Of a stretch of DNA of 64,000 bases, positions 340 to 62,465 are shown one piece after another. The DNA is from Malachius bipustulatus (Eukaryota > Arthropoda > Insecta > Coleoptera > Melyridae), in contig OU342632.1 of assembly GCA_910589415.1 (NCBI GenBank), positions 46,737,341 to 46,801,340 of the forward strand, read 5' to 3'. The notes below the pieces were generated by a model that made no database searches, was not told where the DNA came from, and saw only the letters and a list, made by a program, of their open reading frames with translations. The stretch's first letter is position 1. Each line of letters opens with the position of its first letter. The position numbers and the translations under genes were made by a program.

Positions 340-3300
340 AAGTGTAGTGGAGTAAAATCGGCCTGAAATTATGCTGTTTTTTTTATGAAGGTATAACCAG
401 ATGAGACCTTCACTATCTGGTAGAGAATGATTTTGTCCATCCGAAATGGAATGTGACAACTTTTTTTAGTAGTAACGAATTTTGAAAAATCGAATTTTCT
501 GCTCCCGAGAAATTATTAGAAATTTGTGTTTTTTAAAACATCCATCACGCTCATAAAGCAACGGTTTGAGCTACGGTAATGAATTTTTCGGCATATACTC
601 AAAAAACAAGAGCGCTTCTAGTGGAACTCAGCAAAGTTCGAAAAATTAAGGACTTTTTGAGATAATTGGCCGTAAAGTTGGCACAAGTAAAACCGAGCAT
701 TCTTCATCATGCGGGTAGCTATGTGAATTATTGGGAATAGATGTCTATATGTATGGACTTGAATGAAGAAAACATTATAGAAAAGTTTTTAAAAAAAGAT
801 TCAGCGAGTTAGGTCTCATAGTTTCCGAGAAACCGATTTTTTATTTTACCGTGAATTTGCGCTCGGTCGCTCCGAGTTACTATATTTGCGTAGGTTTAAC
901 TAATGCGAAGTCTAGGTTTTGATGCTTCGCACTACAAACTGGCATAGCGATCGAGTTCTTCCGTAGGTGTGTCTAAGGAAAAATCCACACTGATCTAAAA
1001 TATGAACGCACCGAAACTATTTTTGTTTAATAAAATAAAGAAACATTTTCGCTTAAGTTCGCAATCTTTGAATTTGGTGATAAACGAAAGTTAACAAGCA
1101 CGCAAGATATCTTTGTACGCAAATCGTTTTTCATTTTACATCGTATCTTAACTTTTAGTAATGAGTAAAAAAAAATTTTTTTTTTAGCGATTTCCTCATG
1201 ATGTGTTGATTTCTAGAAATTCTTGGAGCAGTGAATATTATTATTCGAATATAAGAAATCTAATAATTTTTAGTTTTACAATGTCGGCAAGTGGTTGTAG
1301 GCATATTATACAGTACTATATACAAATAAAGATCATTTGTTTATATTTTTATTGAAAATTAGGTTGGTAGATCTTTAGTACCTGCTATACAGGGTGTTAA
1401 GTACCAACTAGTACAAAATAAAGGAGGTGATTCTACGACTTATTCTAAGAAGCTAAGGAGAAAAGTTCCTATTAACATGGGTCCGCAAAAGCACCTTTTT
1501 CGAGATACACCCTGTTCAAAAAAATTATTTTTTCTTACTTTTTCTCAAGGATCTCAAGAATCGTTTGAGCTACACAGGCTCCAGCTTTTGTACAGATTAT
1601 TACATTAATAATACCTACTTTTAAGTGTTTTTTACACAAAGAATACTCTTGGTTAAATATAAGCCACCGTTCTCGAGAAAAACGGCATTTTATGATCATA
1701 AAAACGCACAAAATTCAACATGAACAAAAAATTTTTTTTCAAAACTTCCCATACCGTAACATGTACAAATTCAAATGTACAACTGTAATGTAATGTAATG
1801 TAATGTAAAACTATTTTTCTTGTGCTTTTAGCCAGATTGTTTCCATCTTCGTCTAGAACAGCTTCTTATTCCACCTGAACATGAAGAGCTTTTGGCCGTT
1901 GACACGTACGATTGAACTTCTATTTTTTAAAAAAATAATGCTTTCTGAACGACACACTTACTCTAACGGTATGGTGAAGACAGAGACATCGATGTTTCAA
2001 TGGTTATTTCCATCTCATCAGTCTGTCACATCACCACCACTAGAGAAGTGTGCCGATCAGAAAGAAAATCAAAAGCTTTAAGCAAAATGATTTGTCGGAA
2101 ACATAGTGACTTGCATGGCAAATGCCATCTGATGACTGAAAAGTACAACTTTCAATGTGTCAATCAGAGATTCTCCCAGAGAAATCTGCAATTTTTCACT
2201 ACCAACGCTGACAGTTCACTGAAAAACCAATTACCTTGCGAATCTCAGTAAACCAATCAGAGATGGAGCTAGTCACAAAGCTGTGTTCCTAGAAAGGAAG
2301 TAGTTTCTATGAAACAAATTGAATAATAATAAATTATTATATCAATTACAGCAATCCGATTGTTGAAAAACAATAATGCTTTCTGAACGGCACACTTCTC
2401 TAGTGGTGGTGATGTGACAGACTGATGAGATGGAAATAACCATTGAAACATCGATGTCTCTGTCTTCACCATACCGTTAGAGTAAGTGTGTCGTTCAGAA
2501 AGCATTATTGTTTTTCAACAATCGGATTGCTGTAATTGATATAATAATTTATTATTATTCAATTTGTTTCTATTTTTTAACTTTAATTTTTTGTATAATT
2601 ATTGTAATATACTTAAATTATTACTGTCGTTTGAAAATTTTGTAAACAATAATGTTAAAAGTACGATAACGGCAATCTACCACTTTTTTCGTCTTTTATC
2701 GCACCTGTATTTATTTTTTTCAAGCGAATGCAAAATTTTCCGACGACTGTAATAATTTAAGTATTATAATATAAATAAAAAATTAAAGTTAGAAAAAGTT
2801 CAATCGTAGGTTTCTTGGTAGATATGAACGGCCATATAAAAAATGCTCTTCATGTTCATGGTGGAAGAAGCTGTTCTAGACGAAGTTTAAATCAATGTTG
2901 CTACTAGCACAAGAAAAATGGGTGCAAATTTGAATTTGTGCCATGTTACAGTATGAAAAATTATGAAAATAAATTTTTTGTTCATGTTGAGTTTTGTACG
3001 TTTTTGATCATAAAATTACGTTTTCTCGAGAACGGTGGCTTCTACAGCATTTGATCAGGAGTACTTTTTTGTGTAGAAAACATTGGCTCTGTGAAATTTG
3101 CTCTCAAAATGTCAATTTTTCCAGTGCCGTAAAAGTTAATGGGGTGAAACCCTTACCAAACCCTAAAATCTCCACCACTGGCATATCTTAGAACATTAGT
3201 TTCAAAGTAGCCTTCAAAGTAGCTATTATTAATGTGAAAATTTGTACAAAAGCTGGAGCCTGTAGCTCTAACGGTTCTTGAGATATCGCAAAAAAAGTAA

Positions 3301-23860: not shown

Positions 23861-24451
23861 CAGGGTGTACCATCTCGATTTAGACAACGGTAAGGGCCGT
23901 GTAAAAACTTTAAGGTCTCGTCAAGACGAAACGTTTTTTTATTTGAAGTTTTTGAATTTGGACCTTCGGTGCGGAAATATGGCCGACTTCCGGTTTTTAG
24001 TTTTTTGGCTCCAGTTTCGGCATTTTTAGGTTTTCGCCCAAACTGAAACTAGTTTTGGAAACTCCTTAGCTTCAGTTACAACTCTCATATTGAAGTCAAG
24101 GTTCTATCTCTGTTGGATTCAAAATGGCGACATGCCCAAGACTTTAAGTTTTAAGTCTTTGAATCAATTCAAATTGAATGAAATTGAAAAATTAAGATTT
24201 TGAATCCAACAGAGATAGAACCTTGACTTCAATATGAAAGTTGTAACTGAAGCTAAGGAGTTTCCAAAACGAGTTTCAGTTTGGGCGAGAACCTAAAAAT
24301 GCCGAAACTGGAGCCAAAAAACTAAAAACCGGAAGTCGGCCATATTTCCGCAACGAAGATCCCAATCCAAAAACTTCAAATAAAAAAACGTTTCGTCTTG
24401 ACGAGACCTACACGGCCCTTACCGTTGTCTAAATCGAGCTGATACACCCTG
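23861..24451. mobile_element. 591-bp near-perfect foldback, TA target site
   Basis: It starts CAGGGTGTACCATCTCGATT and ends with the inverse, flanked by TA on both sides. The arms pair over nearly their whole length around a centre at about 24157. Few differences separate the arms, so it is younger than most foldbacks here. It has no protein. Confidence 0.8.
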
Positions 24452-24867
24452 TATATAACCTTCTCTATATTCAAAATAATAATAATAATGGGCTTGGCTC
24501 TTCGAGCTCTCAGGCAGTCTACAAAACAGAGCCTGAGAGCTCGAAGAGCCAAGCCCATTATTATTATTATTTTGTATTTTCATACAGCGGCTCGGTTAAT
24601 ATTTTTCTAAGTACTTATACTCTCATTGGGCAATGATGGTGACATCTGCTGGCTGCGCAACAAAGCCAGACGAAAAGTCGATGCCTCATAGCATATAAAA
24701 CTGCACGAGGCCACTTTTTCTGAATGGCGCGAGTTGCCGTCAGGTCGGTAGTTCCGTCATCCATCGGTAGATGTAGCGATTTTCTCCGGGTCACTGTGAA
24801 CCGGATGAAGGATTTTAATAACGTCTCGAGACCGATGGCAGTCTGCAATTACATCCTCCAGATGTAT

Positions 24868-24933
24868 CTATTCGATATATCACACTGATGAGCTCATAAT
24901 AAGAGCGAAACGGTCCGTCTGTGATTTCGATAG
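24868..24933 (+). ncRNA. Hammerhead ribozyme, type I, copy 1
   Basis: The core CTGATGA is at 24885-24891. Stem II is GCTC/GAGC (24892-24895 with 24903-24906) with a seven-base loop. The second core box GAAA is at 24907-24910. Stem III is three pairs (24910-24912 with 24916-24918). The cleavage triplet GTC ends at 24919. Stem I pairs ATCACA (24879-24884) with TGTGAT (24920-24925), and after an internal loop CTAT pairs with ATAG (24930-24933). All invariant core bases are present, so self-cleavage after 24919 is expected. Confidence 0.92.
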
Positions 24934-25300
24934 GATTATTTGGAAGGCTCTGTTTTGTAGACTGCCTGAGAGCTCGAAGAGCCAAGCCCATTATTATTAT
25001 TATTTTGTATTTTCATACAGCGGCTCGGTTAATATTTTTCTAAGTACTTATACTCTCATTGGGCAATGATGGTGACATCTGCTGGCTGCGCAACAAAGCC
25101 AGACGAAAAGTCGATGCCTCATAGCATATAAAACTGCACGAGGCCACTTTTTCTGAATGGCGCGAGTTGCCGTCAGGTCGGTAGTTCCGTCATCCATCGG
25201 TAGATGTAGCGATTTTCTCCGGGTCACTGTGAACCGGATGAAGGATTTTAATAACGTCTCGAGACCGATGGCAGTCTGCAATTACATCCTCCAGATGTAT

Positions 25301-25366
25301 CTATTCGATATATCACACTGATGAGCTCATAATAAGAGCGAAACGGTCCGTCTGTGATTTCGATAG
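25301..25366 (+). ncRNA. Hammerhead ribozyme, type I, copy 2
   Basis: Same core and stems as the copy 433 bases upstream: CTGATGA at 25318-25324 and predicted cleavage after 25352. Cleavage at both sites would release a 433-nt monomer (24920-25352), ready for circularisation. Confidence 0.92.
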
Positions 25367-25519
25367 GATTATTTGGAAGGCTCTGTTTTGTAGACTGCCT
25401 GAGAGCTCGAAGAGCCAAGCCCATTATTATTATTATTTTGTATTTTCATACAGCGGCTCGGTTAATATTTTTCTAAGTACTTCTCTATATTGCTATCTCG
25501 GAACCGGTAATAGGTGGAA

Positions 25520-60399: not shown

Positions 60400-61560
60400 G
60401 CTATTAACCGAAATCTTTTAAAGTACTTACTAGTTATCTCAGAGATCGCTCCTTACAGGTGGCAGTCGATGAAGTTCTTTCTGAGACTTTCCATCATTGC
60501 CGGTATGTCTAGGGATCGATTTTAGACTCTCTTTCTAATATTTATCAACGATTTGCTTGTAACAACAAAAAAAAACCATGTACATACTTATATCTTATCT
60601 TATTATGCCTTAGATGCACAAACATCTGCCATCGACGCACATACTCGCAGAGTGTATGAAGTTGCCAAACTTAACAATGACTTACAAGAGATTCTAGCTT
60701 GGGGCAATAGAAACCAAGTTCAATTTAATGCTGGAAAAACCCAAGCAGTCATCTTCTCCAAATTATTCTCGATAGAAACGAAGTTCAATTTTTTGCTGGA
60801 CATCGTGATACATTTTTCATTGGCTAATAAGGGTGTTCAGACACAACATGTAAAATTTTTAGGAATCCATTTAAATTCAAAGCTTAACTTTGATGTACAT
60901 GTGGGCAAACTGTTTCAATGCCTTTCAAAGTCTGTGTATGCAGTTAGACAAATTAGAAAGTAGGTTGGAAGTGAGGCTGCTCTCATGGCATATTTTGCAC
61001 TTTTTCACTCTCGTCTTTCTTATGGCATTATGTTGTGGGGAAGGGCTGCAGAAGTGGACTTCACCAGCGTCTTCAAAATACAAGAGGCTGCTGTAAGAGC
61101 GATAGTGGGTGCAAGATTTGATGTACATTGTAGGCGAGTGTTTGAGACATTGAAGATCATGTCGTTGTACTCTATGCTTGTTTTTACTAATTTGTGTTCA
61201 ATTAGGGAAAGTGAGGGATTTAGATGTCACACTGACACTCATCGGTACGACACAGGAGGTAAACATCAGTTAGTGCTTCCACAGCATAGATTAACAAACT
61301 CAAATCCGATAGATGTAAAATTGTTTAACCTGTTACTGTTGGAAATCAGAAATTTACTGTAAAGACATTTAGGATTAGGTATAATGAAAAAATTTATGAT
61401 TAAAAATTGTTTGTACAGCTTACAGGATTTTAATGGAGAACTTCTGAAAGAGTTGTAATAATTATTATATGATTGTATTTTGATTCTTGTTGTTTTTGAC
61501 TTGTTCGTTCAATTTATTGAGTTTCGAGCTAAAAAAATTATTATTATTATTATCCAATTG
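60400..61560 (+). pseudogene. Non-LTR retrotransposon, reverse transcriptase C-terminal half
   Basis: LQVAVDEVLSETFHH (about 60.46 kb) and a decayed active-site region (YYALDAQTSAID, compare YADDTSAI) lead into NDLQEILAWGNRNQVQFNAG (60.68 kb) and VKFLGIHLNSKLNFDVHVGK (60.86 kb). After a frame change near 60960 come YFALFHSRLSYGIMLWGRA and IQEAAVRAIVGARFDVHCR. The protein end is at 61362, and an (ATT)n run at 61540-61553 probably marks the 3' end. The copy is 5'-truncated and frameshifted but better preserved than the other LINE pieces. Confidence 0.85.
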
Positions 61561-61764
61561 TTACGAAAATACCAGAGAAAAGGCAAGTATACTCAACGAT
61601 TAATAAATAAAGGAATAAAAGTATAAAGCACATAAAGTGCAATTACTAGCCTGTTAATTATTCCTCCATCGCCCTAACATTTGTCATACTGGCAGTGCCC
61701 GAAACTCAATTAAGAAAACTTCCATCCAAACAACAACAGAGCCACCAGAGTACCACAACAAGAA

Positions 61765-61806
61765 CAGACACGTGTTTCGCCCTATTGGCATCAGTGTGTT
61801 GCATCT
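61765..61806 (-). ncRNA. Broken hammerhead ribozyme
   Basis: On minus the motif reads CTGATG, then CCAATAGGGCGAAACACGTG. Compared with its inverted partner at 62128, about four bases spanning the last core A and the start of stem II are missing, so it cannot form the catalytic core. Confidence 0.6.
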
Positions 61807-62110
61807 GGAGTATCTGGAGGATGTGGTCGAATGTCTGAAAGCCCTTCAGGTCTTAAACTATTTTTTTTTCTTTATTCCTTTATTTATTAAACGTTGAGTA
61901 CACTTGCCTTTTCTCTCGTATTCATGATTGTCAATCATCCTTGGCATCGGTGGTGTCTGAAACTACAATAAATCTTGGAAGTGAACTCACGATTAGTTCT
62001 TCAGACTGATCGCTAGATGTCACTCTGCTTAAACCGCATGGAGAACCGTGTAATTGGTTTGCTTAAGATCTGGAGGGCTTTCAGACATTCGATAACATCC
62101 TCCGGATACT

Positions 62111-62173
62111 CCAGACACTCCAGCACACTGATGAGCCCCAATAGGGTGAAACACGTGTCTGTGCTTGTTCTGG
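62111..62173 (+). ncRNA. Hammerhead ribozyme, intact
   Basis: Core CTGATGA is at 62128-62134. Stem II is GCCC/GGGT (62135-62138 with 62144-62147; one G/T wobble) with loop CAATA. GAAA is at 62148-62151. Stem III ACA/TGT (62151-62153 with 62156-62158) has a tight two-base loop. The GTC triplet ends at 62159. Stem I AGCACA/TGTGCT (62122-62127 with 62160-62165) is perfect, then CCAG/CTGG (62111-62114 with 62170-62173) closes after an internal loop. All core bases are present. Confidence 0.88.
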
Positions 62174-62234
62174 TACTCTGGTGGCTCTGTTGTTATTTGG
62201 ATGGAAGCTCTTTTGATTGAGTTTCAGGGACTGG

Positions 62235-62465
62235 CAGTGGCGGAGATTTTAGGGCTGTGCGGGGTTTTTTGCCCTTCATTTTCCGACACATCTTTTTTGA
62301 AACATCCAAAGCGAGTTTTTCATGATAAACGGTTCACGCTAGCAAACCAAGAGTACCTTTTTTGTGTAGAAAATATTGGCAGTTTAAAATGCACTTTTAA
62401 AATGTCAATTTAGACATTGGGGGAAAAACCTCACGCAACCCTAAAATCTCCACCACTGGCATATG
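62235..62465. repeat. 230-bp palindromic repeat, related to 3050-3190
   Basis: The ends are GGCAGTGGCGGAGATTTTAG and the inverse AAATCTCCACCACTGGC. The interior (TACCTTTTTTGTGTAGAAAA...) matches the stretch at 3050-3190, which has the same right end. It lies about 115 bp upstream of the splice acceptor of the CDK4/6 first coding exon. Confidence 0.65.

What the first reader, a model, noticed from the sequence alone, without database searches (positions are those of the whole stretch)
24868..25366. Two complete hammerhead ribozymes exactly one repeat unit apart
The sequence shows two type I hammerheads (core CTGATGA, GAAA and GTC, with all stems) at the same place in consecutive 433-bp units. 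Cleavage after 24919 and 25352 would give a 433-nt monomer. Hammerheads in tandem repeats are known from retrozymes, Penelope-like elements and some animal satellites. I do not recognise this unit as a described family.
Basis: partly seen in the sequence, partly recalled or inferred. Interest (0 to 1): 0.9.

Follow-up and report, generated by a model that had tools for sequence, protein, structure and literature searches.

The report
Retrozyme with Penelope-type insertion ends
This stretch holds two hammerhead motifs, predicted to cut their own RNA, in a small repeat that was likely copied into the genome from RNA by Penelope-like mobile elements, because repeat and elements leave insertions with the same unusual pair of unequal ends.

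Summary
In detail: two identical type I hammerhead (HHR) motifs lie 433 bp apart, predicted cleavage after 24919 and 25352. The unit is a dispersed non-coding family (F1; 38 loci fetched besides the window's). The HHR is its most conserved 48-nt stretch. F1 fits the metazoan non-LTR "retrozyme" class.

New is the insertion anatomy. The insert (24472-25479) has a 12-bp target duplication and two head-to-head arms. One arm ends at site A (81-93 nt after the HHR cut), the other at B (127-135). Among 39 F1 and 40 F2 loci (F2: an unrelated 320-nt HHR family), 39 inserts had both ends classified; 38 carry one A and one B. GIY-YIG Penelope-like elements (PLEs) of the same genome do so in 9 of 9 such inserts; family P1 (+83-89, +125-128) has F1's geometry. 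The two arms of an insert resemble each other more than arms of other inserts.

Most likely PLEs mobilise F1, copying circular or multimeric RNA from two start sites, one onto each end of a staggered break. Cleavage, circles and trans-mobilisation are inferred; the papers I saw name PLEs only as candidates.

The parts
24460..24471 (.). Target-site duplication, copy 1: CTTCTCTATATT (12 bp)
   Evidence: Exact repeat of 25480-25491. In F1 and F2 together 29 of 32 inserts with non-simple duplications share 10 bp or more, against 15 of 992 mismatched flank pairs
24472..24534 (-). Inverted left arm, unit positions 88 down to 26; outer end is site A (+88 after the HHR cut, 91 by plain blastn)
   Evidence: blastn layout
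24531..24534 (.). Head-to-head junction of the two arms, 4-bp overlap
24531..24919 (+). Partial unit (positions 45-433), carries the first hammerhead
   Evidence: 100% identical to the full unit
24879..24925 (+). Type I hammerhead motif 1; predicted cleavage after 24919
   Evidence: RF00163, 31.7 bits, below the gathering score of 34; conserved in 92 copies
24920..25352 (+). Full 433-nt unit, HHR cut to HHR cut; no ATG-to-stop ORF over 58 aa on either strand; GC 0.441
24979..24983 (+). 5' arm (GAGCC) of a predicted stem enclosing site A; 3' arm GGCTC at 25022-25026
   Evidence: arms kept in nearly all F1 copies shown while the loop varies
24987..24993 (+). CCCATTA motif, 14 nt before site A of this insert; PLE families P1, P3 and P6 have CCCRYTA 13-14 nt before their A sites
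   Evidence: with ends
25312..25358 (+). Type I hammerhead motif 2; predicted cleavage after 25352
   Evidence: RF00163, 31.7 bits
25353..25479 (+). Partial unit (positions 1-127); outer end is site B (+127; 130 by plain blastn)
25480..25491 (.). Target-site duplication, copy 2

Best explanation
The repeats at 24472-25479 are a copy of a dispersed, non-coding repeat family with a conserved type I hammerhead motif, and its inserts end the way the Penelope-like elements (PLEs) of the same genome end, so the family is likely a retrozyme moved by PLE protein. Shown: the dispersed family, the conserved HHR, head-to-head arms, AT-rich duplications mostly of 12-13 bp, one A end and one B end per insert in F1, F2 and the PLEs, and arms that often run through several units. 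Inferred steps: the transcript would be cut by the HHR and ligated into a circle (or stay multimeric). A PLE endonuclease/RT would cut both DNA strands with a 12-13-nt stagger. Reverse transcription would begin inside the RNA at A on one DNA end and at B on the other, run round or along the RNA, and the two cDNA arms would be joined by end-joining.
For: Dispersed family with arrays of up to 10 full units per arm. Opposite A and B ends in 38 of 39 retrozyme inserts with both ends classified. The same rule in PLE inserts: P1 6 of 6, plus one each of P6, P3 and P2. F1 ends (A 81-93, B 127-135 in the 17 F1 inserts that obey the rule) overlay P1 ends (+83-89, +125-128). The in-vitro PLE from Anolis starts RT internally at two adjacent sites, most often 111-118 nt into an ORF whose HHR cut is at nt 26, so about 85-92 nt after the cut (my subtraction); it cuts and extends both strands (PMC11167929). 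A typical Adineta Penelope insert has an inverted pLTR, an optional tail at one of the inverted pLTRs and a 9-bp duplication; others lack duplications (PMC3846280). Target duplications are 87% AT against 66% in flanks (29 inserts). CCCRYTA motif in F1, P1, P3 and P6 and a stem at A in F1 and four PLEs (weak). Arms of one insert resemble each other. No excess of inner ends at the HHR cut.
Against: No transcript or cleavage data. The HHR is below the Rfam cut-off. No blastn homology between F1 or F2 and the six PLE regions read. F2 lacks the CCCRYTA motif, its enclosing stem is no better than shuffles (258 of 300), and its B site lies about 149 nt from A. P2 lacks the motif too. The stem test is weak for F1 (55 of 300 shuffles do as well). 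The RT domain of the PLE ORFs was not tested: the PF00078 search scored 150 of 18746 candidates and none of the listed matches lies in the P1 arrays. A PLE N-terminal piece found no relatives. PLE duplications lie mostly in simple AT repeats and could not be scored. The published in-vitro PLE shows no difference in start site between the two strands, and its HHR was not needed for insertion. Some arms mix unit variants, which one unit-length circle would not give. 40 of 79 loci could not be scored for the A/B rule, and one scored insert (L026) breaks it.
Confidence: 0.72

Rival explanations
1. The repeat is a retrozyme mobilised by a LINE (non-LTR) machinery instead of a PLE; the ends arise by twin priming and microhomology.
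For: The genome is rich in RVT_1-bearing elements: 18746 first-look candidates, 150 scored. Published work leaves LINEs open (PMC7229834).
Against: Two fixed internal start sites paired one per insert, head-to-head arms and an HHR upstream of the start sites are shared with the PLEs here. Twin priming, as I recall it, puts inverted parts at variable places, not at two fixed 3' ends. LINE inserts of this genome were not examined.
Confidence: 0.1
2. A satellite that spreads by DNA-level processes (unequal exchange, extrachromosomal circles), the HHR being incidental.
For: Tandem arrays; some non-adjacent units share variants, as gene conversion would give.
Against: Dispersed inserts with 12-13-bp target duplications and fixed ends; HHR the most conserved stretch.
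Confidence: 0.04
3. The inserts are truncated or solo pseudo-LTRs of an autonomous PLE, not a separate non-autonomous element.
For: PLE pLTRs carry HHRs and make partial tandems (PMC3846280, PMC11167929).
Against: The unit has no ORF over 58 aa, arms of up to 10 full units follow head to tail without other sequence, and none of six PLE pLTR regions matches F1 or F2. Only six PLE families were read, so a rarer PLE with this pLTR is not excluded.
Confidence: 0.1
4. Fold-back self-priming of one cDNA makes the inverted arm (a model suggested for Adineta Penelope elements).
For: Some inserts have nearly equal inner positions in both arms (for example L031, L067, L078, L080).
Against: Over 39 inserts the inner positions of the two arms are compatible with independence (KS against uniform p = 0.15). 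Self-priming does not explain the A/B pairing.
Confidence: 0.08

Closest known systems
Metazoan non-LTR retrozymes (Cervera and de la Pena 2020, PMC7229834)
   Same: Short non-coding tandem repeats (150-450 bp in the paper) with a type I HHR, low GC, target duplications longer than 4 bp when present, no LTR, dimers to long multimers.
   Different: Sequences were not compared here; the paper calls them species-specific. In the parts of the paper that I read (1-4 of 6, plus term searches) no inverted arms, fixed paired ends or start sites are described, and the mobilising element is left open. Circular RNA was shown there, not here.
Penelope/Poseidon PLEs (PMC11167929, PMC3846280)
   Same: Head-to-head arms, a tail at one end, short target duplications (8-10 bp in the Adineta examples seen), HHR upstream of the RT start sites, start about 85-92 nt after the HHR cut in the Anolis element.
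   Different: F1 has no ORF, hence no RT and no GIY-YIG endonuclease; its HHR has a closed stem III; no blastn similarity to the PLE regions read.
Plant LTR retrozymes (PMC4918200, search listing; described in passages of PMC7761336 and PMC7229834)
   Same: HHR-bearing non-coding retroelement spread through circular RNA.
   Different: Type III HHR, LTRs, primer-binding site and 4-bp target duplications there; type I HHR and 12-bp duplication here.
pDo500 satellite of Dolichopoda cave crickets (PMC2837043, search listing only)
   Same: Hammerhead-bearing repeat of an insect.
   Different: Described as satellite DNA; sequence not compared.

Membership tests
Metazoan non-LTR retrozyme | Type I hammerhead in each repeat unit | tested here: met
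   Core, three stems and RF00163 alignment over 45 of 45 positions; 31.7 bits, below the gathering score of 34
Metazoan non-LTR retrozyme | Short tandem unit (150-450 bp), low GC (<50%), no protein coding | tested here: met
   433 bp, GC 0.441, longest ATG-to-stop ORF 58 aa
Metazoan non-LTR retrozyme | Target duplications larger than 4 bp, no LTR | tested here: met
   12 bp here; 12-17 bp in 29 of 32 scored inserts of F1 and F2
Metazoan non-LTR retrozyme | Transcribed as linear and circular monomer RNA | not testable with these tools
   No RNA data at hand
Metazoan non-LTR retrozyme | HHR self-cleaves | not testable with these tools
   Only conservation
Metazoan non-LTR retrozyme | Host is an animal | not tested
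Penelope-like element (PLE) | ORF with telomerase-like RT and GIY-YIG endonuclease | tested here: not met
   No ORF over 58 aa in the F1 unit
Penelope-like element (PLE) | Head-to-head arms, one-sided tail, target duplication | tested here: met
   38 of 39 retrozyme inserts, 9 of 9 PLE inserts with both ends seen; F1 inserts like a PLE without being one
PLE, as applied to families P1-P6 of this genome | GIY-YIG endonuclease | tested here: met
   150 PF01541 matches over the cut-off (150 scored of 775 candidates), many in open frames of 823-855 aa
PLE, as applied to families P1-P6 of this genome | Telomerase-like RT | tested here: inconclusive
   PF00078: 150 of 18746 candidates scored, none listed in the P1 arrays; no letters left to read the ORFs
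Plant LTR retrozyme | Type III HHR, LTRs, 4-bp target duplication | tested here: not met
   Type I HHR; 12-bp duplication

The most novel reading that the evidence does not exclude
One small ribozyme-bearing RNA, probably a circle, is reverse transcribed twice at once: a PLE protein dimer starts at two different internal sites of the same RNA and copies one arm onto each end of a 12-13-bp staggered break. The one-A-one-B rule and the likeness of the two arms would be its genomic trace, and autonomous PLEs and retrozymes would share this two-headed target-primed reverse transcription.
Probability: 0.4. Interest if true: 0.85.

Novelty: new member of a known kind. Interest (0 to 1): 0.66.

Why it matters
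Animal retrozymes carry ribozymes and are strongly transcribed, but what mobilises them is open in the papers I saw; PLEs are named as candidates because both carry type I HHRs, form tandems and co-occur (PMC7229834, PMC7761336, PMC11722881). Insert ends give direct genomic evidence on that question and predict RT start positions that can be tested with a purified PLE protein. The one-sided tail of PLEs is already described; its strict pairing, and its presence in retrozymes, I did not find in print. If the one-RNA, two-start reading holds, it also explains that tail and the inverted pLTRs.

Tried and rejected
Rfam at gathering cut-off: no hit in the window. Dimeric-circle template: unit-difference counts in L009 and L081 looked alternating, but site-by-site patterns do not alternate, so it is not claimed. 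Nearest-neighbour comparison of arms was inconclusive; a rank test over shared columns was clear, with exceptions (L061 mid-rank 0.95, L017 0.41); its p-value (0 of 100000 simulations) treats inserts as independent, and gene conversion between arms would give the same picture. Fold-back self-priming of inverted arms: not favoured (KS p 0.15), with some near-zero cases. Template of HHR-cut linear monomers: cannot give multi-unit arms; 0 of 131 inner ends lie at the cut (1.06 expected), and 4 lie within 4 nt of it (about 2.8 expected, counted by hand from the list), so there is no excess, though extension by chance matches can shift an end by a few nt. A common enclosing stem at A: weak alone (shuffles doing as well: F1 55, P1 18, P6 12, P3 77, P2 12, F2 258, each of 300). 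Sequence homology F1 to PLE pLTRs: none. A 216-aa PLE N-terminal piece found no relatives (137 candidates, none at E 0.001; only proteins of similar length are candidates), and five PLE pieces found no Pfam family over its cut-off. PF00078 could not test the PLE RT. Species not identified.

Rows dropped before counts: of 79 loci, 24 with one arm only and 16 with an end outside both classes or none were left out of the A/B count; 7 simple-repeat duplications of 39 were left out of the TSD count. The class limits were set after seeing the ends of the first loci, and the F2 B limit was widened from 232 to 236. Only the best-scored copies were available: 212 first-look candidates for F1 and 1087 for F2, 40 scored each.

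Full report
Observation. The array 24531-25482 has period 433, 2.2 copies, 100% matches. Both hammerheads are present as stated, at 24879-24925 and 25312-25358, with C17 at 24919 and 25352. Rfam RF00163 aligns over its whole length at 31.7 bits, E 1.2e-5 for the 1.2-kb search, but under its gathering score of 34. A core-plus-three-stems scan of the window finds both and gives 0 hits in 200 dinucleotide shuffles.

Family. A search of the window's own genome (544 Mb, 52 contigs) gives 166 matches to the unit, a lower bound because 40 of 212 candidates were scored. I fetched 38 further loci (L009-L046). Identity of their pieces to the unit runs from about 81 to 100%. In 92 motif copies that blastn matched over most of the motif the hammerhead is nearly invariant. 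Of all 433 circular 48-nt windows of the unit, the 13 with diversity as low as the hammerhead's or lower all cover it (0.018 against 0.067 for the rest). Folded as a circle, the unit is more stable than 100 shuffles on average (z -3.6; F2 -2.9).

A second family. RF00163 searched through the genome gave 74 matches over the cut-off, of 73468 first-look candidates and 74 scored. The 20 stretches that I fetched around such matches all match a 320-nt unit (F2), a few only in part or at 77-92%. F2 has no useful sequence similarity to F1; a DNA search gave 274 matches, 40 of 1087 candidates scored. With a second lot I had 40 F2 loci.

Insert anatomy. Many inserts in both families have two arms, head to head, each arm reading outward to its 3' end. 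Outer ends fall at two places counted from the HHR cut: A (F1 81-93, F2 77-83) and B (F1 127-135, F2 220-235; in L026 one end at 119 was also classed as B). Of 39 F1 and 40 F2 loci, 39 inserts had both ends classified, and 38 have one A and one B (17 A-left, 21 B-left). The exception is L026 (B/B, in a TA repeat). 24 loci had one arm only and 16 had an end outside the classes or none. Target duplications: 7 simple-repeat cases were set aside; of the remaining 32, 29 share 10 bp or more and 26 share 12 or 13 bp, against 15 of 992 mismatched pairs with 10 or more. The duplications are 87% AT, flanks 66% (29 inserts). In the window the insert is 24472-25479, with A at +88 and B at +127 when the shared letters are given to the target (91 and 130 by blastn), and CTTCTCTATATT on both sides.

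How the arms were made. Inner ends of the two arms fall at positions compatible with independence (KS p 0.15), mostly with short overlaps or gaps. Arms run through the HHR cut repeatedly, up to 10 full units. 0 of 131 inner ends lie at the cut (1.06 expected), and 4 lie within 4 nt of it (about 2.8 expected). So the template was not, as a rule, the HHR-cut linear monomer; a circle or a multimer fits. Units within an arm differ by 0.27% in F1 (0.62% between the arms of an insert, 5.2% between loci) and by 1.1% in F2 (first 20 loci; 1.6% between arms, 3.3% between loci). Some arms mix variants in non-adjacent or successive units (L087, L089, L090, L067), which a single monomeric circle would not give without later change. 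The two arms of an insert are closer to each other than to arms of other inserts: mean mid-rank 0.08 in 15 F1 inserts and 0.15 in 18 F2 inserts, 0.5 if random. An earlier nearest-neighbour comparison was inconclusive. One RNA, one source locus, or gene conversion between arms would all give this.

Link to PLEs. GIY-YIG (PF01541) matches over the cut-off lie in many open frames of 823-855 aa, in tandem units of 3.1-3.5 kb and in head-to-head pairs (150 scored of 775). Six regions (P1-P6, L095-L100) each hold a minimal hammerhead-like motif upstream of an open frame; Rfam does not list these motifs. Insert ends, paired by position and orientation: P1 six inserts of six with one A (+83 to +89) and one B (+125 to +128) (two of them also read); P6 +73/+109, P3 +77/+115 and P2 +62/+103. 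One further P1 window missed the left end; one search gave it. So 9 of 9 PLE inserts with both ends seen obey the rule, and P1 has F1's geometry. P1 inserts with only one listed end were not counted. PLE duplications lie mostly in simple AT repeats and were not scored. P1, P3, P6 and F1 carry CCCRYTA 13-14 nt before A (F1: in the window's insert); P2 and F2 do not. A stem around A is predicted in F1, P1, P2, P3 and P6 but is weak evidence per family, and F2 does not support it.

Literature. PMC11167929 (parts 1 and 2 of 4; passages): a purified Anolis PLE starts RT inside the RNA at two adjacent sites, the sequence between them is the PLE tail, it cuts and extends both strands, with no apparent strand difference in start site; the commonest start is 111-118 nt into an ORF whose HHR cut is 26 nt in, so 85-92 nt after the cut (my subtraction). 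Its HHR mutants still inserted in vitro. PMC3846280 (passages): a typical Adineta Penelope insert has an inverted pLTR, an optional tail at one of the inverted pLTRs and a short duplication; some have none; self-priming was suggested. PMC7229834 (parts 1-4 of 6; passages): metazoan retrozymes, circles shown, mobiliser open, PLEs a strong candidate. PMC7761336 (passages) and PMC11722881 (passages) say much the same. PMC8490949 (passages) describes Schistosoma W-elements with possible duplications and was of no further help. I found no report of paired A/B ends in retrozymes in the searches; the library holds open-licence papers only, and two key PLE-hammerhead papers are not held.

Verdict. The element is a new family of a known kind, the metazoan-type non-LTR retrozyme. 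It inserts like a PLE without being a PLE. The likely mechanism is PLE-driven two-ended target-primed reverse transcription of a hammerhead-processed circle or multimer. Shown here: motif, conservation, dispersion, arms, paired ends, duplications, and the shared rule in the PLEs. Not shown: cleavage, RNA, circle, PLE action in trans, the RT domain of the PLE ORFs, and the species.

Noticed in passing
window 1918-2580: A further hammerhead element (F3): motifs at 2422 (+) and 2021 (-), two head-to-head arms, candidate 13-bp AT-rich target duplication TTCTATTTTTTAA at 1918-1930 and 2568-2580; if so its ends lie at +54 and +109 from the predicted cuts. Rfam does not list it at E 0.01.
   Followed up: partly
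window 61568-62240: A further hammerhead element (F4): RF00163 33.4 bits at 62122-62165 (gathering score 34), inverted arms; 72-84% similar stretches beside F1 copies in L022 and L033. Target duplication unclear.
   Followed up: partly
window 23913-24409: A 497-bp palindromic fold-back sequence (89% self-complementary) ending 50 bp upstream of the target duplication of the F1 insert.
   Followed up: no
L068 (G000:C7:6708300-6710000): A hammerhead of 60.1 bits, the best of the genome search, in a copy only 77-80% identical to the F2 unit: perhaps a related third family.
   Followed up: no
G000:C11 (84 kb contig): GIY-YIG matches about every 3327 bp along the contig, mostly in 833-aa frames, facing away from a centre between 20 and 26 kb: a head-to-head PLE array.
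   Followed up: no
F1 unit positions 193-228 (window 25112-25147): A well conserved block containing CATATAAAA, possibly a promoter TATA box (reading recalled, not tested).
   Followed up: no
Insert flanks of F1 and F2: Bases just outside the duplications are skewed (C or G in 22 of 29 at -1, G in 15 of 29 after position 12), a loosely palindromic target as a symmetric double cut would give.
   Followed up: partly
window 60526-61362: Reverse-transcriptase-like fragment: weak RVT_1 match below cut-off in the first of two adjacent open frames.
   Followed up: no
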